Of a DNA stretch of 64,000 nucleotides, positions 33,645 through 45,415 are shown in pieces (position 1 is the first letter of the stretch; each line of letters starts with the position of its first letter). The stretch comes from Chromobacterium subtsugae (GTDB taxonomy: Bacteria; Pseudomonadota; Gammaproteobacteria; Burkholderiales; Chromobacteriaceae). A program made the translations under genes and the position numbers. The stretch lies in NCBI RefSeq assembly GCF_001676875.1, contig NZ_JYKA01000003.1, forward strand, positions 186,001-250,000, in the 5' to 3' direction. Under the pieces are notes generated by a model that saw only the letters and a list, made by a program, of their open reading frames with translations, made no database searches and had not been told where the DNA came from.

Positions 33645-33846
33645 GCCAGATTCCGCGAGGCCGTCCGCCTGCGGCGCGGATGGCCAAAAATACGTCAAGC
33701 TCCCATTCTTATTACCAGTTTATCCGCTCTGTTCCGCGCGTCTGTCGCCGCGCGGGACGTCTCTGGCTTGCTCGGCCGCTAAAATACATTGTCATTTGTG
33801 GCTCGGCGGCCGCCGGCCATGCATCCCACCCACGGAGGAGAGAACA

Positions 33847-35697
33847 ATGTGCGGCATCGCAGGTTGGATCAGCTTTGAGCGGAATGTGAGGGATTACCGC
33901 GAAGTCATCGACAATATGACGCGCACCATGCGGCTGCGCGGGCCGGACGCCGGCGGCGTATGGCTGGATCGCCACGCGGCGCTGGGCCACCGCCGCCTGT
34001 CCATCATCGATCTGGAAGGCGGCAGCCAGCCGATGCTGGCGGAGGAGGACGGCAAGACGCTGGCCTGTCTGGTATATACCGGCGAGGTGTACAACTTCCA
34101 GGAGCTGCGCCGCGAATTGATCGCGCTGGGCCACGGTTTCCGCACCCGCAGCGACACCGAGGTGGTGCTGCGCGCCTATCTGCAATGGGGCGAGGCGCTG
34201 ACCGAGCGCCTGAACGGCATGTACGCTTTCGCCATCTGGGACGCGCGCGCCGAGCGGCTGCTGCTGGTGCGCGACCGCATGGGCGTCAAGCCGCTCTACT
34301 ATTATCCGCTGCCCGACGGCGTGCTGTTCGGCTCCGAACCCAAGGCCATCCTCGCCCATCCGGAGGCGAAGCGCGTGGTGAAGGCGGAAGGGCTGCGCGA
34401 GATGCTGGATCTGGTGAAGACGCCGGAGGCGGCGGTGTTCGATGGCATGCGCGAAGTGCGGCCGGGACAGACAGTCACCGTGGACCGCGCCGGCCTGCGC
34501 AAGCACCGCTACTGGAAACTGGAGGCGCGCGAGCACGGCGACGACCTGCCCGCCACCATCCGCACCGTGCGCGAGTTGCTGGACGACATCGTCGAACGCC
34601 AGATCGTCGCCGACGTGCCCCTGTGCACCTTGCTGTCCGGCGGACTGGACTCTTCCATCATCACCGCGCTGGCGGCGTGCAGCACCGCCCGGCAAGGCAA
34701 GGGCAAGGTGCGTTCGTTCTCGGTGGATTTCATCAAGCATGGGGTGGAGTTCGCCTCCGACTACCTGCGCAGCTCGCCGGATGCCCCCTTCGTGCGCGAC
34801 TTGGCCGCCCATGCCGGCACCGATCACCAGGAAATTCTGCTGGAAAGCCGTGATCTGGCCGATCCGGCGTTGCGCGCGGCGGTGCTGGGCGCGCAGGATT
34901 TGCCGCCGGCCTACTGGGGCGACATGCTGCCGTCGCTGTACAAGCTGTTCGAGGCGATCCGCGCCCAGTCCACGGTGGCGCTGTCCGGCGAGTCGGCCGA
35001 CGAGGTGTTCGGCGGCTACCGCTGGTTCCACGACGCCGCCGCGGTGGCGGCCGACACCTTTCCCTGGCTGTCCGGCGCCACCGCCTCCTTCTTCGACGGC
35101 CAGTCGCTGGTATCGCCGGATTTGCTGCGGCAGCTGGACATGGCGGGCTTCCGCCGCGACAGCTACGCGCAGGCGCTGGCCGAGGTGCCGACCCTGGCCT
35201 CGGACGACGCCAAGGAAAAGCGCATGCGCGAAATCAGCCACATGCATCTGACCCGCTTCGTGCAGGGGCTGTTGGACCGCAAGGACCGGATGAGCATGGC
35301 GGTAGGGCTGGAGGTGAGGGTGCCGTTTTGCGACCACCGGCTGGTGGAATATGTGTTCAACGCGCCGTGGCGGATGAAGAATTTCGACGGCCGCGAAAAG
35401 AGCCTGCTGCGCGCCGCCGGCAAGGATGTACTGCCGGACTCCATCGTTCAGCGCGTCAAGAGCCCGTATCCGGCCACCCAGGATCCGGCATATGAGCAGG
35501 CGCTGCGCCAGGGCCTGGCGCGGGTGCTGGACGACGCCGCCGCGCCGGCGCTGCCGCTGCTGGACCGGGCCGCGGCGTGGAAGCTGCTGGACCGGCCGTT
35601 CGGCAAGACCAGCTCCGCGCCGGAGCGCGCCGGACTGGAAATGGCGCTGGGGCTGAACGAGTGGCTGCGGCACCATCGGGTGGTGCTGGATTTATAA
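33847..35697 (+). CDS. asnB: Asparagine synthetase (glutamine-hydrolysing)
   Basis: A 616-residue enzyme converting aspartate, glutamine and ATP to asparagine. Cys2 after the initiator (MCGIAGW) is the glutaminase nucleophile. RLRGPDAGG, GHRRLSIID and NGMYAFAIWD complete the Ntn domain. The synthetase domain has the pyrophosphatase loop LLSGGLDSSIITAL and SGESADEVFGGYRWFH. GGAGGAG lies before the ATG. It belongs to the AsnB forms seen with amidotransfer in both housekeeping and secondary metabolism. Confidence 0.95.
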   Translation: MCGIAGWISFERNVRDYREVIDNMTRTMRLRGPDAGGVWLDRHAALGHRRLSIIDLEGGSQPMLAEEDGKTLACLVYTGEVYNFQELRRELIALGHGFRTRSDTEVVLRAYLQWGEALTERLNGMYAFAIWDARAERLLLVRDRMGVKPLYYYPLPDGVLFGSEPKAILAHPEAKRVVKAEGLREMLDLVKTPEAAVFDGMREVRPGQTVTVDRAGLRKHRYWKLEAREHGDDLPATIRTVRELLDDIVERQIVADVPLCTLLSGGLDSSIITALAACSTARQGKGKVRSFSVDFIKHGVEFASDYLRSSPDAPFVRDLAAHAGTDHQEILLESRDLADPALRAAVLGAQDLPPAYWGDMLPSLYKLFEAIRAQSTVALSGESADEVFGGYRWFHDAAAVAADTFPWLSGATASFFDGQSLVSPDLLRQLDMAGFRRDSYAQALAEVPTLASDDAKEKRMREISHMHLTRFVQGLLDRKDRMSMAVGLEVRVPFCDHRLVEYVFNAPWRMKNFDGREKSLLRAAGKDVLPDSIVQRVKSPYPATQDPAYEQALRQGLARVLDDAAAPALPLLDRAAAWKLLDRPFGKTSSAPERAGLEMALGLNEWLRHHRVVLDL

Positions 35698-35703
35698 GGC
35701 CGC

Positions 35704-35735
35704 GGCCACGCCGGGCGATGTCGCCCGGCGTGGCC
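35704..35735 (+). terminator. Long perfect hairpin after asnB
   Basis: GGCCACGCCGGGCGA pairs perfectly with TCGCCCGGCGTGGCC over 15 bp with a 2-nt nominal loop, starting 6 bp after the asnB stop. It lacks a T-tail, so it may act as a factor-dependent terminator or an RNA-end stabiliser. Confidence 0.55.
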
Positions 35736-35739
35736 ATTC

Positions 35740-36337
35740 CCAAGAGAAGGGGGCTGGCTGCCATCCCAAGCGCAGAGCCCCGCCTTGGCGCCATAGGCCT
35801 CCCGCGCCGCGGCGCAAATCTTCATTTTGTCGGTCTGTTCTCATGCCTCCCAGGCCTGACTGCCCGCCGCTTGGCGGACGATCGCGCATGCCGCCCCCAT
35901 TCCCGTTGCCCATGCGGCGCAAGGCAAGGCTCGGCTGGTCTGCGTCGAAAGGCTTTGCGCGTCGCCAACGGCAAGCCGTGGATCCTGAGTTCTGCAATAT
36001 CGCCCAGGCGCAAACTGCGTGGCGATGGGCATCCGCGCAGATTTCCGCTGCTTCAGGCATCGGTCTTCGGCGCATGCCAGCCGCCGGACTGGGATCGGCC
36101 TGGATGGAAAGCGGCATCAGAACGCCATGCCAGCGGCGGTTGGTTGCAACGGGCAAGCTTAGGCTTCATTCGGAATAGCAATGGCTTGGGTGTTGTGTCG
36201 AATTCCGATTGGCGAGTATCGGATCAATTGAGTCTTGTTGCTCGCGTGTGGCTGGGATGCTTGTCTGGGGAGGGGCGTGACGCGTTCACTTGGGGATAGG
36301 CAGTAGGATGCAACAGTCCAGGTTGTTGTCATACTGG
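35740..36337. other. Non-coding flank left of the island
   Basis: About 600 bp of mixed composition with several overlapping open frames on both strands. None has a ribosome site plus a recognisable protein. It probably represents decayed sequence between asnB and the inverted repeat. No repeat or RNA gene was recognised. Confidence 0.5.
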
Positions 36338-36385
36338 CTTATACTATTGTAGTATGCATATATATTTAATTATGATAATGTATTT
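36338..36385 (+). repeat. Left 48-bp terminal inverted repeat
   Basis: Outer end CTTATACTATTG; it contains the perfect dyad ATACTA-TTG-TAGTAT (36341-36355), then ATATGCATAT and ATTATGATAAT, so it is nested with smaller palindromes. It matches the reverse complement of 43809-43856 except at two positions. The next 335 bp (36386-36720) hold no gene that I can support. Confidence 0.9.
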
Positions 36386-36723
36386 GCCAATTGCGGTGAG
36401 TGGAATCCGAACGAATTTCGCCGGCAATGCCTTCCCGACGGAACCGGCCTCTGACAGCAAGCCCGACCGACGCGCGGGAGGTGGCGGCAGTAAACAGATG
36501 CCAGCTAAGTGGCCAGGAAAACGACTGGCTGACATTGCCCTCATGCATTGCGTCAGCAGTCTGCTCCATAGATTCAATCTATTCCTATATTTTGCTTACA
36601 TTCTTGAGCGCGCGGTGTGCCTGAGTGTGGATTGCGCTCGGGTATTGTCGGAGGCGAAGAGAGTGACAGGCATGGCTGCTGCGCGCTGTTCTCGATACTG
36701 ATCTGTTTTATGAAAAATATGAT

Positions 36724-37107
36724 ATGAAAAGCAAAAAAATACTCAGCGTATTGTTAGGATTGATGGCGATTATTTCATCGCAATGGTCCTTGGCGGATAA
36801 TGACAATGGCAGAAACCTATATTCGCAGCGATGCGCAATGTGCCATGGGTCTGATCTTAAGGGGACGGGGCCGTTGGCTAATAAAAGCAATCCACCGACA
36901 CCCGATATTACAACGCCAGCCTTCAAGAGAAGATTAGCAGCCTACCCGGGGGTTATCGTGTCATCTGTGATACTTCGGCCCAATGGTGATCTAATTCCAA
37001 AAACCTTGCAAGAGAATGGTGTGAGACTGTCGCCGTTTGCTTGGAGAATTAAAGATTTGCGTGATTTGAATCAGTATATGAGTGGCGTTATTTTAAAAAG
37101 TCGATGA
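36724..37107 (+). CDS. Small periplasmic c-type cytochrome
   Basis: A 127-residue protein with a Sec signal peptide (cleavage near SLADN) and one haem-attachment motif CAMCH (CxxCH). The motif is followed by a GSDLKGTGPLAN loop typical of small class I cytochromes. A Met near the C-terminus (QYMSGV) could be the sixth haem ligand. It would shuttle electrons in the periplasm. Codon use is A+T-rich, unlike flanking genes. It lies 150 bp before the flavoprotein gene, but a direct functional link is not shown. Confidence 0.85.
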   Translation: MKSKKILSVLLGLMAIISSQWSLADNDNGRNLYSQRCAMCHGSDLKGTGPLANKSNPPTPDITTPAFKRRLAAYPGVIVSSVILRPNGDLIPKTLQENGVRLSPFAWRIKDLRDLNQYMSGVILKSR

Positions 37108-37258
37108 TTTTAAATCAAGTGATTGAAGCGTAACGCGAAGAGCCGTCATGTGGATGGTTGCAAGTAAATTATTCAGCGAAGAGTTAATTGGATATTTGGC
37201 ATGGTCAGTAGTGTTTGCAGAAGGTTCTACAAATTTTCTAACTTAGGTTGATAAGCTC

Positions 37259-38437
37259 ATGCGGACAAAGGTTGCAATCATAGGTGCGGGGCCTGCGGGG
37301 TTAATGCTGGGGCAGCTTCTTTCTTTGGCAAATATAAGCAACGTAGTGATTGAGAATCGCTCTAGAGATTATGTGGAAGGCCGAAGCCGCGCAGGCCAGA
37401 TTACTCCTGCCACGGTCCAGATTCTTACCGAAAGCGGTGTTGGCGCGAGAATTCATTCTGAAGGAATGGTACATTCTACGCTGCAGTTTCATTATGAAGG
37501 CTCGACGCGTGAGTTGAATTTTCAAGCGCTAACTGGGCGCACGGTGACTATTTATGGGCAGCAAGAAATTATCAAGGACCTGATTGCCGCGCGCTTGAAG
37601 ACGGAATTTCCACTGCTGTTTGACGCTGCAGATGTTCAGATTCATGATACTGACGGATTTTCGCCATATGTTTCATTTTCGCATGGCGGTGAGCAGCAGA
37701 CGCTAGAGTGTGATTTTATCGTCGGTTGCGATGGCTTCCACGGTATTTGTCGACCGCATATCTCAGACTCTCTCACCCAGTTTTCGTACAACTACCCGTT
37801 TACTTGGCTTGCTGTTCTGGCTGAAATGTCGCCGATTTCGCCGGACGTCATTTTTTCCAGTCACGAGACAGGGCTTGCATTATTTACGATGCGATCGCCG
37901 AATGTGTCAAGAATCTACTTGCAGTGCTCGCCAGACGAAGACCCCAATGAGTGGTCTGGTTCGAGAATCTGGGATCTTTTGCAATTACGGTTGGAAGGCA
38001 GGCCTGAGAAGGTGAATGGCGGGGCAATCATTGAGAAAAGCATTGTGCAACTTAGAAGCTTTGTTGCTGAGAAAATGCAAAAAGGCAGGCTGTTTCTGGC
38101 TGGAGATGCCGCGCATATCGTTCCTCCTTCTGCTGCGAAAGGGCTGAATCTCGCGGTTTCCGATGCGAATATTTTGGCCCGCGCTTTTGAGCAGCACTAT
38201 GGCAAAGGCAAGGAAGATCTTTTGTTGTCTTACTCTGATATCGCATTGAAGCAGATATGGCGGGATGTACAGTTTTCCCATTGGATGGCCATGTTGTTGC
38301 ATCGTTTCGATGACAACTCTCATTTTCATAGACGTCTGCAGATAGCAGAGCTGGATAGGGTGCTTGGCTCTGGGCCAGCCGCGCAGAGTTTCGCTGAACT
38401 ATGGGTTGGCAATCCGCCATTCGCCGCGTCGATTTAA
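37259..38437 (+). CDS. Flavoprotein monooxygenase of the p-hydroxybenzoate hydroxylase family, altered active site
   Basis: A 392-residue group A flavin monooxygenase, collinear with PobA. GAGPAGLMLG binds FAD. GRSRAG retains Arg42 and Arg44. CDFIVGCDGFHG and FLAGDAAHIVPPSAAKGLNL are family signatures. By alignment from memory, the carboxylate-binding Arg214 is kept (Arg212 here). Tyr201 becomes Phe199, Ser212 becomes Thr210 and Tyr385 becomes Trp382. Both tyrosines that relay the proton from the 4-hydroxyl are thus lost. It probably hydroxylates a different aromatic or cyclic carboxylic acid, perhaps one derived from the PhzE product. It precedes the amidotransferase by 15 bp, so they are co-transcribed. 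Confidence 0.88.
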   Translation: MRTKVAIIGAGPAGLMLGQLLSLANISNVVIENRSRDYVEGRSRAGQITPATVQILTESGVGARIHSEGMVHSTLQFHYEGSTRELNFQALTGRTVTIYGQQEIIKDLIAARLKTEFPLLFDAADVQIHDTDGFSPYVSFSHGGEQQTLECDFIVGCDGFHGICRPHISDSLTQFSYNYPFTWLAVLAEMSPISPDVIFSSHETGLALFTMRSPNVSRIYLQCSPDEDPNEWSGSRIWDLLQLRLEGRPEKVNGGAIIEKSIVQLRSFVAEKMQKGRLFLAGDAAHIVPPSAAKGLNLAVSDANILARAFEQHYGKGKEDLLLSYSDIALKQIWRDVQFSHWMAMLLHRFDDNSHFHRRLQIAELDRVLGSGPAAQSFAELWVGNPPFAASI

Positions 38438-38452
38438 ATATAGAATTGCGCC

Positions 38453-39166
38453 ATGGATCAAACACGAAAAATTCTGATTGTCTTGCATCAAGAGCACTCC
38501 ACGCCTGGCCGAGTTGGTTTGCTGTTGCGTCAACTGGGATTCGAGCTTGATATCCGCAGGCCACGATTTGGAGATCTTCTCCCGCAGAATATGCGGGAGC
38601 ACGATGGTGCGGTAATTTTCGGTGGTCCGATGAGCGCAAATGATAGCGATGCGTATATTCGTGAAGAAATCAATTGGCTGGATAAGCCGTTGAGTGAAGG
38701 GAAGCCGTTGCTTGGCATTTGTCTGGGTGCGCAAATGCTGACGCGGCATCTGGGGGAGCGAGTATATCAGCTTGATAATGGAGGAATTGAGGCTGGTTAT
38801 TATCCGATAGCGCCGTTGCCGGCGGCGCACAGGATAACCGAAGACGCATGTGCCCCCTTTCCGGACTATGTCTATCAATGGCATAGCGAAGGGTTTGACT
38901 TGCCGACAGGCGCTACGCTTCTGGCCGAAGGCTCAACCTTTCCAATTCAGGCATATCGATATGGGCATAATGCCTACGCCTTGCAATTTCACCCAGAAGT
39001 GACTTATGAGACGATTGATCGCTGGTCGTCGCGTGGAACCGAGCGGCTCAAAGCGCCTGGTGCGAAGCCCGCATGCGAGCACTTGACTGATTGGCATCAA
39101 TACGATTCAGCCGTTGCGGCCTGGATCAGCGCGTTTCTGCCAAAGTGGATAGCATCGCCAGCTTGA
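38453..39166 (+). CDS. Stand-alone class I glutamine amidotransferase
   Basis: A 237-residue GATase of the GMP-synthase/GuaA-N type. The nucleophile elbow is LLGICLGAQML. The His-Glu pair is in ALQFHPEVTYE, so the triad is complete. Such free-standing domains release ammonia for a partner or hydrolyse gamma-glutamyl compounds. PhzE, encoded next, already carries its own GATase. This protein may therefore serve another amidation, or remove a glutamyl group. The partner is unknown. Confidence 0.88.
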   Translation: MDQTRKILIVLHQEHSTPGRVGLLLRQLGFELDIRRPRFGDLLPQNMREHDGAVIFGGPMSANDSDAYIREEINWLDKPLSEGKPLLGICLGAQMLTRHLGERVYQLDNGGIEAGYYPIAPLPAAHRITEDACAPFPDYVYQWHSEGFDLPTGATLLAEGSTFPIQAYRYGHNAYALQFHPEVTYETIDRWSSRGTERLKAPGAKPACEHLTDWHQYDSAVAAWISAFLPKWIASPA

Positions 39167-39281
39167 AGCCGCGCGACTGTATAGGGACTGATGCGCAATA
39201 TCATCGCTAAATTGCTGGTATAAAAATTATAAAAACCAATCAGACTCATATTTTCATCAAATATGTCGGCTAGGAATGATT

Positions 39282-41198
39282 ATGACCACCACCTTTCCGT
39301 TTCAAGAAGATGAATGCTTTTTTTTGATGCGTCGCAAAAATGAACCAACAGTACTTGCATGCACAGGAAAGGTAGAGAGGTTTCGCCATTTGGCGGATAT
39401 TCCCATGAAGTCTGGGCTAGCCGATAGCCATACTTTCGATTCAGTCAACCTGATTCCATTTGCTCAAGCCCGAGAACGTGGCTTTCCTGTGCATGATGAT
39501 GGGGAGCCTATCGTTTCTCTGCAAATCGAGAATTCGCAATATTTCCCGCTCAGCCAGTTTGTCGAGATGCTACCCAATGAACAGGTGGACATTTCAAATA
39601 TATCGTTCACTACCGATCAGGCTGAATACGAAGCCATCATCAGAAATATCATCAACTGTGAAATCGGGACGGGGCAAGGCGCAAATTTCGTCATCGCACG
39701 GGAATGCGTCGCTCACATCGGCAATGCTGAGCTGAGTGGCATTCTCAGTATTTTCCGTTCACTGCTTCTGAATGAGTTCGGCGCTTACTGGACTTTCGCT
39801 TTCTATGATGGAGAGCATTATTATCTTGGCGCATCTCCCGAACGACATATTTCGGCTTCGTGCGGCGAGGTCATGATGAATCCCATCAGTGGCACCTATC
39901 GTAAAAATAGCGCATATGAGGTGGCGGAAAGCGAGAAGGATTTTCTGGAATTCCTTCAGGACGAGAAAGAAATTTTCGAGCTCTTCATGGTTTGCGACGA
40001 AGAACTCAAGATAATGAGCGAGATTTGCGATCAAGGCGGCTCGGTGATCGGCCCCATGCTCAAGGAAATGTCCCGCCTGATTCATACCGAATATCTGTTG
40101 GTAGGCAAGACGGACAAGTCGATCATCGATCTGCTGCGTCGCTCCATGTTTGCGCCGACGGTCACCGGCAGTCCGGTGCTGAGCGCATTTCGCGTCATCC
40201 ACCGATACGAGAAGCAATCCAGAGGTTATTACGGCGCCACGATCGCCCTGGTCGGCCGCAATAAGGATGGCAGCGCGACGCTGGATGCGCCGATTCTCAT
40301 CCGCACGCTTCAAATAGACCGGGCAGGCAAGGCGGTAGCCCGGGTGGGCGCCACCTTGGTTCGCGGCTCCAATCCGATGCATGAGGTGTGGGAAACGGAA
40401 ACCAAGATTGCAGGTTTGTTCAACGCGGTCCGCAATGCAGGCAAGAGTCCGGCACCTCCCGAGCGCTTGTTGGACAAGATGGATCATGAGCAGATTCAAA
40501 GACTGCTGCAGTCCAGGAACGCGTATCTATCCCGCTTCTGGTTCGAATCGCAAGACGCGGACTTCGGAACGGAGCCATCGTTGCGCGGAAAATCCGTCAC
40601 CATCGTGGATGCGGAGGATGATTTTTCGGTGATGCTCAAGCGTCTGCTGGAGCAGCTTGAGATGCAGGTGAGCTTGGTTTCCTTCGCCGACTACAACCCT
40701 CAGCTTCATCAGAGCGATCTGTTGGTGGCGGGACCCGGCCCAGGCAACCCTCTGGATAGCCAGGATGGCAAGATGATGCGCTTGCGCAATATAATCGCCG
40801 CCCGCTTGGAGAGTGGGCAAGCGATGCTTTGTGTTTGCCTGTCTCATCAGATTCTGTGCGACATCCTTGGCTTTCCCGTGATCACCAAGGCGGTTCCCTT
40901 GCAAGGCACGCAGCAAGTGATTGATTTGTTCGGGACTCAGCAGCGAGTGGGTTTCTACAATACTTACGTCGGATTGGCTACGCAAACGCTCGAGCAAGTC
41001 AGGGTGGCGAGCGATGAGGAATCGCGCGAGATACATGCGTTGCAAGGCGAGCGGTTCTTCAGCGTGCAATTCCATCCCGAATCGATTCTTACACCTCACG
41101 GTTTCGAGCTGACGCGGAAGATATTGAGCCGGCTCTTGCTGACGCGTCAGTTTGAAGACAGGGAAAGGCCGGTTTTGATCGGCGATGCCGTTCTGTGA
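39282..41198 (+). CDS. phzE: PhzE-type 2-amino-2-deoxyisochorismate (ADIC) synthase
   Basis: A 638-residue fusion of a chorismate-utilising domain (to about residue 420) and a class I GATase. ARERGFPVHDDGEP, SNFVI-like GANFVIARE, GASPERHIS and MMNPISGTYRK follow PhzE rather than TrpE. The GATase carries LCVCLSHQILC (Cys519) and VQFHPES, with the PhzE-like GFYNTY segment between. It converts chorismate and glutamine to ADIC, keeping the pyruvyl group. The second ATG (39282) fits AGGA best. No phzA/B/C/D/F/G is nearby, so the ADIC must enter a different route. A 115-bp A+T-rich leader with TATAAA-like boxes suggests its own promoter. Confidence 0.9.
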   Translation: MTTTFPFQEDECFFLMRRKNEPTVLACTGKVERFRHLADIPMKSGLADSHTFDSVNLIPFAQARERGFPVHDDGEPIVSLQIENSQYFPLSQFVEMLPNEQVDISNISFTTDQAEYEAIIRNIINCEIGTGQGANFVIARECVAHIGNAELSGILSIFRSLLLNEFGAYWTFAFYDGEHYYLGASPERHISASCGEVMMNPISGTYRKNSAYEVAESEKDFLEFLQDEKEIFELFMVCDEELKIMSEICDQGGSVIGPMLKEMSRLIHTEYLLVGKTDKSIIDLLRRSMFAPTVTGSPVLSAFRVIHRYEKQSRGYYGATIALVGRNKDGSATLDAPILIRTLQIDRAGKAVARVGATLVRGSNPMHEVWETETKIAGLFNAVRNAGKSPAPPERLLDKMDHEQIQRLLQSRNAYLSRFWFESQDADFGTEPSLRGKSVTIVDAEDDFSVMLKRLLEQLEMQVSLVSFADYNPQLHQSDLLVAGPGPGNPLDSQDGKMMRLRNIIAARLESGQAMLCVCLSHQILCDILGFPVITKAVPLQGTQQVIDLFGTQQRVGFYNTYVGLATQTLEQVRVASDEESREIHALQGERFFSVQFHPESILTPHGFELTRKILSRLLLTRQFEDRERPVLIGDAVL

Positions 41199-41273
41199 TC
41201 TGAGCCTGGGACGTGAGCGCTCAGCGCTTAGCCCCAGGCTTGCAAGTCGAAATCTCCGCCCGCTTATGCAATG

Positions 41274-41301
41274 AAAACCTGCCCCCAAGGCTGGGGGCAG
41301 G
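41274..41301 (-). terminator. Intrinsic terminator at the island's convergence point
   Basis: CCTGCCCCCA pairs with TGGGGGCAGG across AGGC. On the - strand the stem is followed by TTTT. It terminates the leftward transferase gene and lies 75 bp past the phzE stop. Confidence 0.88.
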
Positions 41302-41308
41302 GCGGCTT

Positions 41309-41920
41309 TCACTTTAGCGGGGTATCGACAAACTCAGGCAACAGTTCGACTTGGTCGGCATAGGCTGCAAGCGCGGTATAGGTTTGGACATCCACCAAGT
41401 GGGATACCCTGAATTGGGTGAAACGCCAAGCCGCGGCCACGGTGACATCGGCCTGAGACAGCTGCGCGGTGGCAAGCCAAGGGTTTGCTTGGGCCGCGGC
41501 TTCTTCCAGAAGCGCCAGCGCGGCATGCAATTGTTCGGTTATGCGGCTTAGCCAAGGAGCATATTGATATTCGCCGGGCTTGTTGTGCTCATATTCGAGT
41601 TGAACGGCTTTTTCGCAAACCGTGAGGCCAAGTCCGATCAGCGACAGCACCTTTCTGTGTTGTTTCGAGTCTTTTGGCATCAAACTGCGGGAGGGGTCGA
41701 CCCGTGATTCCAGATAGTCAATGATCATCGACGAATCCATGATCATTTCGCCGTCATCGCAGATCAGCGTCGGCGCCTTGACCGCCGGATTGATGGCGCG
41801 GAACTCATCCACATTGCGAAATACCGAGATTTGCCGGTGCTCATGCTCTAAACCCATCAAGCGCAACGAAATTGCCACGCGCCGAACATAGGGTGATCCC
41901 ATCATGCCAACAAGTTTCAT
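41309..41920 (-). CDS. Glutathione S-transferase family protein
   Basis: A 203-residue two-domain GST. The thioredoxin-like half starts KLVGMMGSPYVRRVAISL. AINPAVKAPTLICDDGEMI carries the cis-Pro and MDSSMIIDYLE the Ser-Ser glutathione-binding turn. An all-helical half follows. ATG 41920 follows GGGGGAATTG; a TTG one codon earlier is less likely. It may conjugate or isomerise reactive quinones/epoxides made by the island's monooxygenase; that link is inference. Confidence 0.88.
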   Translation of the reverse strand: MKLVGMMGSPYVRRVAISLRLMGLEHEHRQISVFRNVDEFRAINPAVKAPTLICDDGEMIMDSSMIIDYLESRVDPSRSLMPKDSKQHRKVLSLIGLGLTVCEKAVQLEYEHNKPGEYQYAPWLSRITEQLHAALALLEEAAAQANPWLATAQLSQADVTVAAAWRFTQFRVSHLVDVQTYTALAAYADQVELLPEFVDTPLK

Positions 41921-42021
41921 CAATTCCCCCTGAGGTTTTAATCGTTCGCTTTTCCAGTCGACCCATTTGGAGTCGAAGGTAAAGAAGAACGAGTGTTACA
42001 TGAATACGATTACGTAATTAA

Positions 42022-42867
42022 CTACATGTCGATTTTAGAAAATTCAACCTTTGAGTTGTAGAATAAAGAGGCGCGTTCCGAAACGGTTTCAGCATCACCT
42101 GTCGTAAGGAATTGGTTGTCTCCGATTCTGGTGCTGGAAAAATGCGGGTTTCTTTTTAAGTACTCAAGCAGGCTCTGGGCGCAAGCGTCCGGCTGAGAGA
42201 TGATGCGCATGGAATCCGGCAGTTCTGTTCGCCATATATGCTCTACTATCGGGTAATGTGTGCAAGCCAGTACGCAAACGTCTGGAACTTCCTGGTTGGC
42301 ATTAAATAGCGCGTTGATGTTTTTCCGAATTTCTGCCCGCAGCACGGCTTCAGGCGCGGCTTGTTCGATGAGCAGGGCAAGACCATTGCATGCTTGTTGG
42401 CGCACGTTTATGCCGGGGTTTCTGCTGTTGATTTCCGCCGTGAAGATATTGGATTGCACGGTGTGCTGCGTCGCGAATATCGCAACGCTCTTGACCGGGC
42501 GATGGGGATGAGCGCGCGTGCTGTCGAATTTCCAATCCCAAGGAGTGGCGATGATCTCCTCGACAGTGGGTACGACAACTCCGACCGCGCGCCGACCTGG
42601 GTACGCTTGGGGCAGCCATGTCTGCTGAATCTTTCGGAGGCTGGTGGCCACTGCAGTATTGCAAGCGATCACCACCAGTGAGCAACCATGCTCAAAAAGG
42701 CGGGCAAGAGCCGCTTGTGTCAAGTCATAGATAGCATCTGCTGAGCTATTGCCATAGGGTGGGTTTCCGTGGTCGCCTAAATAGACGAACTTCTCATTGG
42801 GCAAAACGGATTCAAACGCGCGCATCACCGTCAAGCCGCCGCTGCCGAAATCAAATACGCCAATCAA
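42022..42867 (-). CDS. Glutamate-racemase-like enzyme (Asp/Glu racemase family)
   Basis: A 281-residue MurI-like protein. Both catalytic cysteines are present: VVIACNTAVATS and VLACTHYPIVEH. VYLGDHGNPPYGNSS matches the family's PYG loop. The usual DSG at the N-terminus, where Ser contacts substrate, reads DFGSGG, and there is an unusual insertion around residues 108-125. It may be an accessory racemase with shifted specificity rather than the cell-wall MurI. It follows the LysE exporter gene by 46 bp on the same strand, suggesting a make-and-export pair. Confidence 0.82.
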   Translation of the reverse strand: MIGVFDFGSGGLTVMRAFESVLPNEKFVYLGDHGNPPYGNSSADAIYDLTQAALARLFEHGCSLVVIACNTAVATSLRKIQQTWLPQAYPGRRAVGVVVPTVEEIIATPWDWKFDSTRAHPHRPVKSVAIFATQHTVQSNIFTAEINSRNPGINVRQQACNGLALLIEQAAPEAVLRAEIRKNINALFNANQEVPDVCVLACTHYPIVEHIWRTELPDSMRIISQPDACAQSLLEYLKRNPHFSSTRIGDNQFLTTGDAETVSERASLFYNSKVEFSKIDM

Positions 42868-42913
42868 AGCCAGCCTCGCTTATCTGCTCGTGTTGTTAAA
42901 CTGTTGCGATGAG

Positions 42914-43516
42914 CTATATCGTGGTTGCTATCGCAATGGCGACGCCAATATATAAAATGCCCGTGACTAGGCTCATTTGACGTTTTGTCTTGAATATTTT
43001 CGCCGCATGGCGAGCCATTAACATGTATAGCGCGTATACCGATGTGGAAATGAAGATCGCTGTTGCCACTAATGCAATGCACTGCGGCGCGTATGATATA
43101 TTGTTATTTATGAATGTCGGGAACAGTATTATATTGGTCAATATCCCTTTGGGGTTCGTGAATGAGACAATGACGGCGCCGGTAAACATCTGAAAAGGTG
43201 TGCGCTTGCTTGAGCTTGCAACCGCAATTTGGGAGCGCGAGCGTAGCGATTTCAATGCAAGGTAGAGTAGGTAAGCAACCCCTATCCATTTGAGCCAGAA
43301 GAAGATGCCAGGATTATTCTTGACAAGTATGCCTAGGCCTGAGAGGACAATGACGGCGTGGCCCCCGCTTGCCAGACCAAAACCAATGGCGCCGGGAAAG
43401 GATTGTTTAAAACCATTATCAAGAGCTTGCGCCATAGAGAAGGCGACATTCGGACCGGGTAGGATGGCTGCCGAGAGAAATACGACGCAAAACAACATCC
43501 AAAGTTGAAAATCCAT
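42914..43516 (-). CDS. LysE/RhtB-family exporter
   Basis: A 200-residue inner-membrane protein with about six helices and the signature ILPGPNVAFSMAQAL. It also has VSFTNPKGILTNIILFPTF, as in RhtB/LeuE-type amino-acid exporters. AAGGA precedes the ATG. It heads the leftward half of the island. Upstream are two adjacent palindromes (43646-43678) and no regulator gene. The exported compound could be an amino acid, a racemase product or an amino-aromatic. Confidence 0.87.
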   Translation of the reverse strand: MDFQLWMLFCVVFLSAAILPGPNVAFSMAQALDNGFKQSFPGAIGFGLASGGHAVIVLSGLGILVKNNPGIFFWLKWIGVAYLLYLALKSLRSRSQIAVASSSKRTPFQMFTGAVIVSFTNPKGILTNIILFPTFINNNISYAPQCIALVATAIFISTSVYALYMLMARHAAKIFKTKRQMSLVTGILYIGVAIAIATTI

Positions 43517-43645
43517 ACTGCGCTATCCTTGTATAGCTGTCGAATCCCAGATGATTCCGAACTGGTTGAAATCATTCATCAGGGGAGAGGCCTAGTTACT
43601 CTGCACGCATTCACAAAGTCGGTACAGCAGCCGGTGGAGGCATGG

Positions 43646-43678
43646 ACTCAGTGAGTTGCCGCATTCAGTCACTGAATG
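43646..43678. promoter_or_regulatory. Two adjacent palindromes upstream of the exporter operon
   Basis: ACTCA-G-TGAGT (43646-43656) is followed by CATTCAGT-C-ACTGAATG (43662-43678). Both are perfect, and their centres are 19 bp apart. They share a CAGT/ACTG core and look like paired operator sites for a dimeric regulator. The regulator is not encoded in the island. The rest of 43517-43808 holds no gene that I can support. Confidence 0.45.
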
Positions 43679-43808
43679 AGCGCCAAGCCAGCCCTGGCGT
43701 TTTGGCAGCCTTGCCCCTCATTTGGTCTCTTGGTCCTGGGGGCGGCAACGCGCCAGCTGCTTGGGGTGGCCGTTGACAGCGGCGTTGCGCGGGCACTGCA
43801 TCCACCTA

Positions 43809-43856
43809 AAAGACATTATCATAATTAAATATATATGCATACAACAATAGTATAAG
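43809..43856 (-). repeat. Right 48-bp terminal inverted repeat
   Basis: Its reverse complement equals 36338-36385 except at two positions (T for A at position 14, C for A at position 45). The outer end is again CTTATACTATTG. Similarity stops abruptly on both sides, marking the island boundary. From 43857 to 44236 the sequence is G+C-rich with no gene that I can support. Confidence 0.9.
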
Positions 43857-44236
43857 AGTCCGTGGGGGATCCATTGCCTGTAGCGCCGGCGCGCCACCTC
43901 ACGGCCTCGGCTCCTTTTTCAGGAGGAGTCGCAGATTGGCGGATCAGCGGGCGAGCGTTGAGGCGCGGGGGCGCATTCAGGATGGCTGTTGTGCTGCGCG
44001 CCTTGCCGCGGCGGGTTGAGCGCGACTTCTGACGGCGGGAGGCCCGAGACCATCTTGCGCGATATGGAATGGCGCCGCGATCCCGAGCGCTTTCCCATCC
44101 TTGGGCAGAAGGCGGCAAGGACGGGAATAAGGGCGCGGCTGCGCGACCGGCGGATAACGCGGCGGGTAAAGCGGGGGACGCTACCGGGGCTTGTCTGTCA
44201 GGCTTATCGCTTGCCAAACCGCAGTCGCAGCCACCG

Positions 44237-44680
44237 CTAGCGCGGCGGCCGCACCGGACGGCCCTGCAGCGGCGTGGACAGGATGATGGAGGTGCGGGTT
44301 TCGCCCAGGTCGTTGAGCTGGGACACCAGTTGCTCCAGGTGGCCGACGTCGCGCGCCAGCAGGCGGAACACGTAGGAGTCGACGCCGGTGACGTGGTGGC
44401 ATTCCATCACTTCCGGCATCGCTTCCAGCCGAGCCAGCAGCGTCTTCTTGTCTGGTTGCGGCACGGTGATGCCCACCCATGCCGATAGCGCGTAGCCGGC
44501 GCGTAACGGCGCCACACGGGCGTGGTAGCCGCCTATCACCCCGGCTTCTTCCAGCCGCTTCACTCTTTCCGATACCGCGGGCACCGACAGGCCCACCGCC
44601 TGCGCCAGTTCGGTCAGCGACTGGCGGGCGTTGTCCTGCAGCGCGGCCAGGATAGCCCAGGATTTTGCGTCTACTTCCAT
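44237..44680 (-). CDS. Lrp/AsnC-family transcription regulator
   Basis: A 147-residue regulator. The N-terminal winged helix-turn-helix contains LTELAQAVGLSVPAVSERVKRLEEAGVI. The C-terminal RAM ligand domain includes VMECHHVTGVDSYVFRLLA. AAGGAG precedes the ATG. It is divergent from a LysE-type exporter with a 126-bp shared promoter region, the classic arrangement for an amino-acid sensor controlling an exporter. Confidence 0.93.
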   Translation of the reverse strand: MEVDAKSWAILAALQDNARQSLTELAQAVGLSVPAVSERVKRLEEAGVIGGYHARVAPLRAGYALSAWVGITVPQPDKKTLLARLEAMPEVMECHHVTGVDSYVFRLLARDVGHLEQLVSQLNDLGETRTSIILSTPLQGRPVRPPR

Positions 44681-44806
44681 TCGTAAACTCCTTCTGCCGT
44701 TTTGCCTCAGATTTAAAAGCCAGCATAGCGTCTAGGCGAAAAAACCGCATGGGCAGTCGCGCGGCGGGGCGGCACACTATGAGCATGGATTAAGGGGAGG
44801 ACGAAC

Positions 44807-45415
44807 ATGTTCTGGCAGGCGGCTTTGATAGGCTTGGCGATTGCGGCGCCGATGGGGCCGATAGGTTTGTTGTGCGTCAGCCGCACTCTGCGCGGCGGGC
44901 CGCGGCTGGGCCTGGCCACCGGCCTGGGGGCGGCCAGCGCCGATGGCCTGTTCGCAATGGCCGGCGTCGCCGGCAGCGGCGCGGCGCTGCATCTGGCCGG
45001 AGCGCTGGCGCGGCCGCTGGCTTGGGGCGGCTGCCTGCTGTTGGCGTGGCTGGGCGTGGCCACGCTCAGGCGGCCGGAAAGCCAGCCGGCGGTGCGGGAA
45101 GAAGGCCGCGTCGGGCTGCGGCGCGCTTACGCCGGCGCGCTATTGCTGACGCTGAGCAATCCGATGACCATCCTGTCCTTCGCCGCGGTGGCGGCCGGCT
45201 TGTCAGGCGGCCTGGCCGCCAGCGGCGCGCAGCAGCTGGCCATTGTCGCCGGGGTGTTTTGCGGCTCCGCCGCGTGGTGGCTGATATTGGCCTATGGCGG
45301 CGGCGCCTTGCTGGCGCGGCTGGGCGCGCGCGGCCGCCGCTTGCTGGACGCAGGCTGCGGTCTGCTCTTGCTCGGTTTCGCCGTCTTGCTGGCCTGGCGC
45401 GCGGCGGGCGGCTGA
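44807..45415 (+). CDS. LysE-family amino-acid exporter
   Basis: A 202-residue, six-helix exporter with AIAAPMGPIGLLCVSRTLRG at the N-terminus and TLSNPMTILSFAAVAAGL in the middle, both family signatures. GGGGAGG lies 6 nt before the ATG. It is probably controlled by the divergent Lrp-type regulator. It is G+C-rich and only distantly like the island LysE, so it is not a recent copy of that gene. Confidence 0.9.
   Translation: MFWQAALIGLAIAAPMGPIGLLCVSRTLRGGPRLGLATGLGAASADGLFAMAGVAGSGAALHLAGALARPLAWGGCLLLAWLGVATLRRPESQPAVREEGRVGLRRAYAGALLLTLSNPMTILSFAAVAAGLSGGLAASGAQQLAIVAGVFCGSAAWWLILAYGGGALLARLGARGRRLLDAGCGLLLLGFAVLLAWRAAGG

What the first reader, a model, noticed from the sequence alone, without database searches (positions are those of the whole stretch)
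36338..43856. 48-bp inverted repeats exactly bound an A+T-rich seven-gene island
36338-36385 equals the reverse complement of 43809-43856 at 46 of 48 positions, and similarity stops abruptly outside both. The A+T-rich, differently composed genes lie between. No transposase, integrase or target duplication is visible. This fits a non-autonomous mobile unit, a unit moved by a partner in trans, or an invertible segment.
Basis: partly seen in the sequence, partly recalled or inferred. Interest (0 to 1): 0.88.

Follow-up and report, generated by a model that had tools for sequence, protein, structure and literature searches.

The report
Transferred gene cassette between inverted repeats
A seven-gene, A+T-rich cassette that this bacterium seems to have acquired from elsewhere lies between two matching 48-base inverted repeats; a related gene set sits on a plasmid of a distant bacterium that bleaches rice leaves, and whether the repeats are transposon ends or paired control regions is still open.

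Summary
In detail: 36338-36385 and 43809-43856 are inverted copies (46 of 48) with abrupt edges. They are the only copies found in this genome, and none was found in the 18 other genus genomes.

The new DNA is larger than the repeat-bounded part. In 6 of the 8 other genus genomes with this asnB region, asnB and lrp lie 6 bp apart; here 8,539 bp separate them. The repeats sit 640 and 380 bp inside. A seventh genome carries another ~2 kb insert there.

All seven genes lie between the repeats. Methylobacterium indicum plasmid pVL1_1 carries relatives of six of them (51-69% identity) beside a different chorismate-using enzyme. That strain bleaches rice leaves through unidentified genes (PMC8674445). 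There the cluster lies between ~166-nt direct repeats instead.

Best reading: a horizontally acquired biosynthesis-and-export cassette; the repeats are ends of a transposase-less unit moved in trans (0.4). Main rival: paired control DNA of two convergent operons (0.3). I found no target duplication, partner element or recombinase.

The parts
35698..44236 (.). whole stretch of DNA found only here between asnB and lrp (8,539 bp; 6 bp in six relatives)
36338..36385 (+). left 48-bp repeat, 17% GC
43809..43856 (-). right 48-bp repeat, 19% GC, inverted copy
36724..37107 (+). small cytochrome c-like protein (127 aa)
   Evidence: PF00034 25.6 bits (cut-off 21.3)
37259..38437 (+). PobA-type FAD monooxygenase (392 aa)
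38453..39166 (+). class-I glutamine amidotransferase (237 aa)
   Evidence: NF005072
39276..41198 (+). PhzE-like chorismate-using synthase with amidotransferase domain (640 aa)
41309..41923 (-). glutathione S-transferase-like protein (204 aa)
42022..42867 (-). divergent Asp/Glu racemase-family protein (281 aa)
42914..43516 (-). LysE-family exporter (200 aa)
35698..36337 (.). left spacer between asnB and the repeat, 63% GC, no family match in the frames scanned with Pfam
43857..44236 (.). right spacer between the repeat and lrp, 67% GC, no family match in the frames scanned
33841..35697 (+). asnB-type asparagine synthase, left anchor shared with relatives
44237..44680 (-). Lrp/AsnC-type regulator, right anchor shared with relatives

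Best explanation
36338-43856 is a horizontally acquired metabolic cassette. Shown: foreign composition, absence at this junction in the relatives that could be read, and recurrence of six of its seven genes together on a distant plasmid. Inferred: it makes and exports a small chorismate-derived, aminobenzoate-like compound; the PhzE-like enzyme supplies 2-amino-2-deoxyisochorismate or anthranilate, the PobA-like enzyme oxidises it, the amidotransferase, GST and racemase tailor it or protect the cell, and LysE exports it. Inferred and less certain: the 48-bp repeats are the two ends of the last unit that carried it, a transposase-less unit moved by an enzyme supplied in trans and not present now, which landed in a larger variable spacer between asnB and lrp.
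For: Near-identical, inverted, abrupt ends far beyond chance that enclose all seven genes; junction empty (6 bp) in 6 of 8 relatives with the asnB region and differently filled in a seventh; genes A+T-rich; the outer spacers are slightly more host-like than the inner end pieces (log-likelihood -0.012 and 0.003 against -0.046 and -0.039); relatives of six genes travel as one A+T-rich block on a plasmid typed as conjugative.
Against: No target duplication; no second pair or partner with related ends in this genome; the new DNA extends 640 and 380 bp beyond the repeats; no sharp composition break at the repeats: on the left GC falls to 56% from about 220 bp outside, and G+C-rich patches of 62-65% lie inside; the plasmid cluster has different flanks and no such repeat. 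No transposition was observed, and the chemistry is not tested.
Confidence: 0.4

Rival explanations
1. The repeats are paired control DNA. The island consists of two convergent operons (cytC-pobA-gat-phzE and lysE-racemase-gst), and each begins downstream of one repeat in the same relative orientation. A copied A+T-rich element, such as a distant operator or a silencer or activator site, switches both operons together.
For: Gene layout; similar distances, 338 and 292 bp, from repeat to first start codon; very low GC of 17-19%; dyads ATACTA-TTG-TAGTAT and ATTAT-G-ATAAT in the left copy.
Against: The dyads are common in shuffles (20% with 5-bp arms, 28% with 6-bp arms) and the 6-bp one is not kept in the right copy; no promoter-like match lies wholly in a repeat, and the regional number is at chance, 9 against 7.4; the distance is long for a promoter; operators rarely agree at 46 of 48 positions with abrupt edges; nothing similar in the M. 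indicum cluster.
Confidence: 0.3
3. The segment is invertible by a recombinase that acts on the repeats (a DNA invertase, or XerCD on dif-like sites).
For: The inverted orientation would allow it. The best dif-like match scores 14 of 22 arm positions.
Against: 13 of 500 shuffles score 14 or more; the genome's own dif-like site lies on another contig; no recombinase match in the island or in the spacer frames scanned. Inversion of two convergent operons gives no obvious switch.
Confidence: 0.05

Closest known systems
Gene block on Methylobacterium indicum VL1 plasmid pVL1_1 (NZ_AP024146.1, L075 11920-19128)
   Same: Relatives of six of the seven genes: amidotransferase 69%, LysE 66%, GST 64%, cytochrome 60% over 99 of 127 aa, PobA-like 57%, racemase 51%; A+T-rich (44% against 68% GC); no integrase or transposase annotated within the block.
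   Different: All genes on one strand in another order; TrpE-type synthase (27% to the PhzE-like protein) in place of PhzE; flanked by direct repeats of about 166 nt (162 of 166 columns), not by inverted 48-mers.
Mobile insertion cassettes and other transposase-less units between terminal inverted repeats (recalled; listings only)
   Same: Passenger genes between near-identical inverted ends and no transposase inside.
   Different: No target duplication and no partner element with related ends found here.
Phenazine clusters (PhzE)
   Same: PhzE-like synthase, 587 residues aligned with solved PhzE 3r74.
   Different: No isochorismatase (PhzD) or PhzF among the seven proteins.
4-hydroxybenzoate 3-monooxygenase (PobA)
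   Same: Full-length match to subfamily NF006091, 501 bits against a cut-off of 351; Arg214 and Tyr222 positions kept.
   Different: Below the equivalog cut-off TIGR02360 (445 against 539); Phe at the Tyr201 position and Thr at Ser212 in both cluster enzymes, Trp at Tyr385 in this one.

Membership tests
Horizontally acquired genomic island | composition unlike the host | tested here: met
Horizontally acquired genomic island | absent at the same site in close relatives | tested here: met
   6 of 8 other genomes with the asnB region have a 6-bp gap, one has a different insert, one lacks lrp at the junction; 10 of 19 genomes have no long asnB match and were not read there
Transposase-less unit with terminal inverted repeats (MIC-like) | near-identical terminal inverted repeats | tested here: met
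Transposase-less unit with terminal inverted repeats (MIC-like) | target-site duplication | tested here: not met
   no match of 2-11 bases across the edges
Transposase-less unit with terminal inverted repeats (MIC-like) | partner element with related ends | tested here: not met
   two copies only in this genome; not seen in 18 genus genomes
Transposase-less unit with terminal inverted repeats (MIC-like) | empty site joined at the repeat edges | not testable with these tools
   the 640- and 380-bp spacers have no extended relative in the genus
Invertible segment | recombinase nearby and two orientations | tested here: inconclusive
   no recombinase match in the proteins and frames scanned; orientation in cells not testable
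Xer/dif-bounded module | dif-like site in the repeats | tested here: not met
   14 of 22 arm positions; 13 of 500 shuffles reach 14; own dif-like site elsewhere
Phenazine biosynthesis cluster | PhzD and PhzF with PhzE | tested here: not met
   no such match among the seven proteins
PobA equivalog | score above the equivalog cut-off and Tyr201/Tyr385 | tested here: not met
   residue roles recalled

The most novel reading that the evidence does not exclude
The cassette is a mobile, undescribed biosynthesis-and-export cluster for a chorismate-derived antimetabolite, shared by this unnamed host and a rice-bleaching Methylobacterium. It travels as a self-contained unit under different end structures (inverted 48-bp ends here, about 166-nt direct repeats there) and is the missing candidate for the unexplained leaf-bleaching trait.
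Probability: 0.15. Interest if true: 0.8.

Novelty: new member of a known kind. Interest (0 to 1): 0.5.

Why it matters
It shows a compact gene set, not found described in two literature searches, in two distant bacteria without mobility genes of its own. It links an unannotated island to a plasmid cluster of a strain whose plant disease has no known genes, so that a specific candidate locus can be tested by gene removal. For mobile-element work it is a clear case in which near-identical inverted ends exist but the usual marks of transposition do not.

Tried and rejected
Common intergenic element: rejected; two copies in this genome, none in 18 other genus genomes. Class sample: 10 of 369 genomes counted, one being this genome; the other 9 gave only weak matches of 17-40 bp. 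Viral contigs with a 26-base pattern: 0. Xer site: weak. Hairpin in the repeat: no better than shuffles. RNA families in 35600-44400: one sub-threshold match, at the hairpin after asnB. Pseudogenes in the spacers: none by Pfam in 10 of 28 frames; one marginal match of unknown function (E 0.044) by PHROGs in 9 of 28. Repeat-like sequence in the M. indicum cluster: best local score 14, while 100 shuffled queries averaged 13.8.

More clusters: PhzE at 1e-3 matches all 19 genus genomes, but apart from this one only G015 is strong (41%, 4.7e-129); the rest are about 22-32%, and G015's copy has no other island gene beside it (L057). PhzE at 1e-100 in the class sample: 1 of 369, this genome. Racemase in the phylum sample: 43 of 398 at 1e-40 including this one; 10 neighbourhoods fetched, one of them cut by a contig end, no other island gene. 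Amidotransferase: 1 of 349 order genomes, this one; 34 of 398 in the phylum sample with a two-row profile including this one; 6 neighbourhoods fetched, one only 6.4 kb, no other island gene. One PhzE relative in genome contigs (L054, 49%) has no other island gene beside it. Cytochrome relatives in Cupriavidus, Burkholderia and Azospirillum records: no other island gene beside them beyond a weak PobA-like hit (27%, E 1e-4) in one. Phages: no DNA match; PobA-like proteins in 3 records, 44-47%. Viral contigs by protein: none for PhzE or the amidotransferase. PADLOC: no match for the seven proteins. Paper searches: 0 papers for the cluster terms; listings only, from which I took nothing.

Full report
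The observation. Similarity ends at once: 2 of 10 bases match outside and 1 of 10 inside. The longest exact inverted stretch in 35500-44700 is 30 nt; 100 dinucleotide-preserving shuffles reached at most 19. The arms are 17% and 19% GC in surroundings of 54-67%. No other copy was found in the genome, by blastn or by a 20-base end pattern with up to 3 mismatches, and none in the 18 other genomes of the genus. Of 369 genomes drawn from the class, 10 had a match at E 0.01, one being this genome; the other nine were weak matches of 17 to 40 bases.

The true insertion. With asnB as an anchor, 9 of 19 genus genomes have the long match: this one and eight others. In six of the eight (G002, G008, G009, G012, G017, G018) the stop codons of asnB and of the Lrp-type gene are 6 bp apart (read from the printed sequences). 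In G016 about 2 kb lies between them, with a transposase-like match below its cut-off (DUF4096, E 1.7e-4) next to asnB and a mannose-binding-lectin-like gene. In G015 no Lrp-type gene was found at the junction. Here the gap is 8,539 bp, 35698-44236. The 640 bp left and 380 bp right of the repeats have no extended relative in the genus and no match in plasmids. The spacer frames that I scanned match no Pfam family (10 of the 28); PHROGs gave one marginal match of unknown function in 9 of 28. So the repeats bound the gene set but not the new DNA, and no empty site at the repeat edges is available.

The genes. On the + strand from the left: a small cytochrome c, a PobA-type FAD monooxygenase, a class-I glutamine amidotransferase and a PhzE-like synthase. 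On the - strand from the right: a LysE exporter, a divergent Asp/Glu racemase and a GST-like protein. The two operons converge, and each begins downstream of one repeat. The PhzE-like protein aligns over 587 residues with solved PhzE 3r74, but no PhzD or PhzF match appears among the seven. The racemase keeps the two cysteine motifs CNT and CTH, which I recall as catalytic in glutamate racemases.

The monooxygenase. It keeps Arg and Tyr at the positions of Arg214 and Tyr222 of 4-hydroxybenzoate hydroxylase but has Phe at Tyr201 and Thr at Ser212, as does its M. indicum relative; here Tyr385 is Trp, in M. indicum Tyr. That Tyr201 and Tyr385 handle the 4-hydroxyl, and that Ser212, Arg214 and Tyr222 bind the carboxylate, is recalled. 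From that I infer a benzoate-like substrate without the 4-hydroxyl, for example an aminobenzoate. The product is not known.

A second home for the gene set. M. indicum VL1 plasmid pVL1_1, typed as conjugative, carries relatives of six of the seven genes in one block: amidotransferase 69%, exporter 66%, GST 64%, cytochrome 60% over 99 aa, monooxygenase 57%, racemase 51%; a TrpE-type synthase (27% to the PhzE-like protein) stands beside them. The block is 44% GC against 68% in the plasmid next to it. It lies between two direct copies of about 166 nt (162 of 166 columns identical) that repeat the 3' end of a plasmid gene and the palindrome after it. I found no 48-bp repeat there: the best local score of 14 is no better than shuffled queries (mean 13.8). 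Of the strain's paper (PMC8674445) I saw the abstract and the start of the introduction and 12 of 32 passages. It reports leaf bleaching of rice, says that no phytotoxin cluster was identified, and says that the plasmids have only limited homology with a non-pathogenic strain. I did not read the whole text and did not test whether non-bleaching strains lack this block.

How rare it is. No further copy of the cluster turned up in samples of 369 class genomes (PhzE) or 349 order genomes (amidotransferase). In 398 phylum genomes racemase and amidotransferase hits were numerous (43 and 34, this genome included); I read 10 and 6 of their neighbourhoods, two of them cut by contig ends, and none held another island gene. 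In plasmid records pVL1_1 was the best match by identity for the racemase, amidotransferase and exporter. These are samples, so other copies may exist.

What the repeats are. For ends of a mobile unit speak the near-identity, the inverted order, the abrupt edges, the enclosure of the whole gene set, and slightly more host-like outer spacers. Against speak the missing target duplication, the missing partner, the position inside the new DNA, the lack of a sharp composition break (on the left GC falls to 56% about 220 bp outside the repeat), and the different flanks of the plasmid block. For paired control DNA speaks the layout of one repeat upstream of each operon. Against it speak the distance of 338 and 292 bp, the lack of a promoter-like match wholly within a repeat (one straddles the outer edge of the left copy), dyads that 20-28% of shuffles reach and of which the 6-bp one is not kept in the right copy, and identity over nearly all 48 positions. 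I put mobile-unit ends at 0.4, control DNA at 0.3, no function at 0.22 and inversion at 0.05; these are judgements. That the island is horizontally acquired I hold as nearly certain.

Limits. Only one genome per species is held, so variation within the species could not be tested. I had no host intergenic control for the composition profile of the spacers.

Noticed in passing
L075 11539-11704 and 20133-20297 (M. indicum pVL1_1): The related cluster lies between two direct copies of about 166 nt, the 3' end of a gene in the T4SS region plus the palindrome after it, as an insertion at a gene end would leave; no integrase is annotated in the block.
   Followed up: partly
L055 4743-6719 (G016): The same asnB-lrp junction holds another insert of about 2 kb with a mannose-binding-lectin-like gene and a transposase-like fragment below its cut-off, so the junction looks like a variable site.
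   Followed up: partly
window 35698-35760: A very stable G+C-rich hairpin right after asnB (-26.7 kcal/mol, z -5.25), also seen as a sub-threshold CRISPR-repeat match; probably a terminator.
   Followed up: no
L118, L119, L120: Relatives of the island's small cytochrome (63-68% identity) occur in Cupriavidus, Burkholderia and Azospirillum records without the other island genes; in Azospirillum transposase genes stand on both sides.
   Followed up: partly
window 44807-45415: A second LysE-family exporter of host-like composition (third-position GC 87%) lies just beyond lrp; in G015 neither it nor lrp was found at the junction.
   Followed up: no
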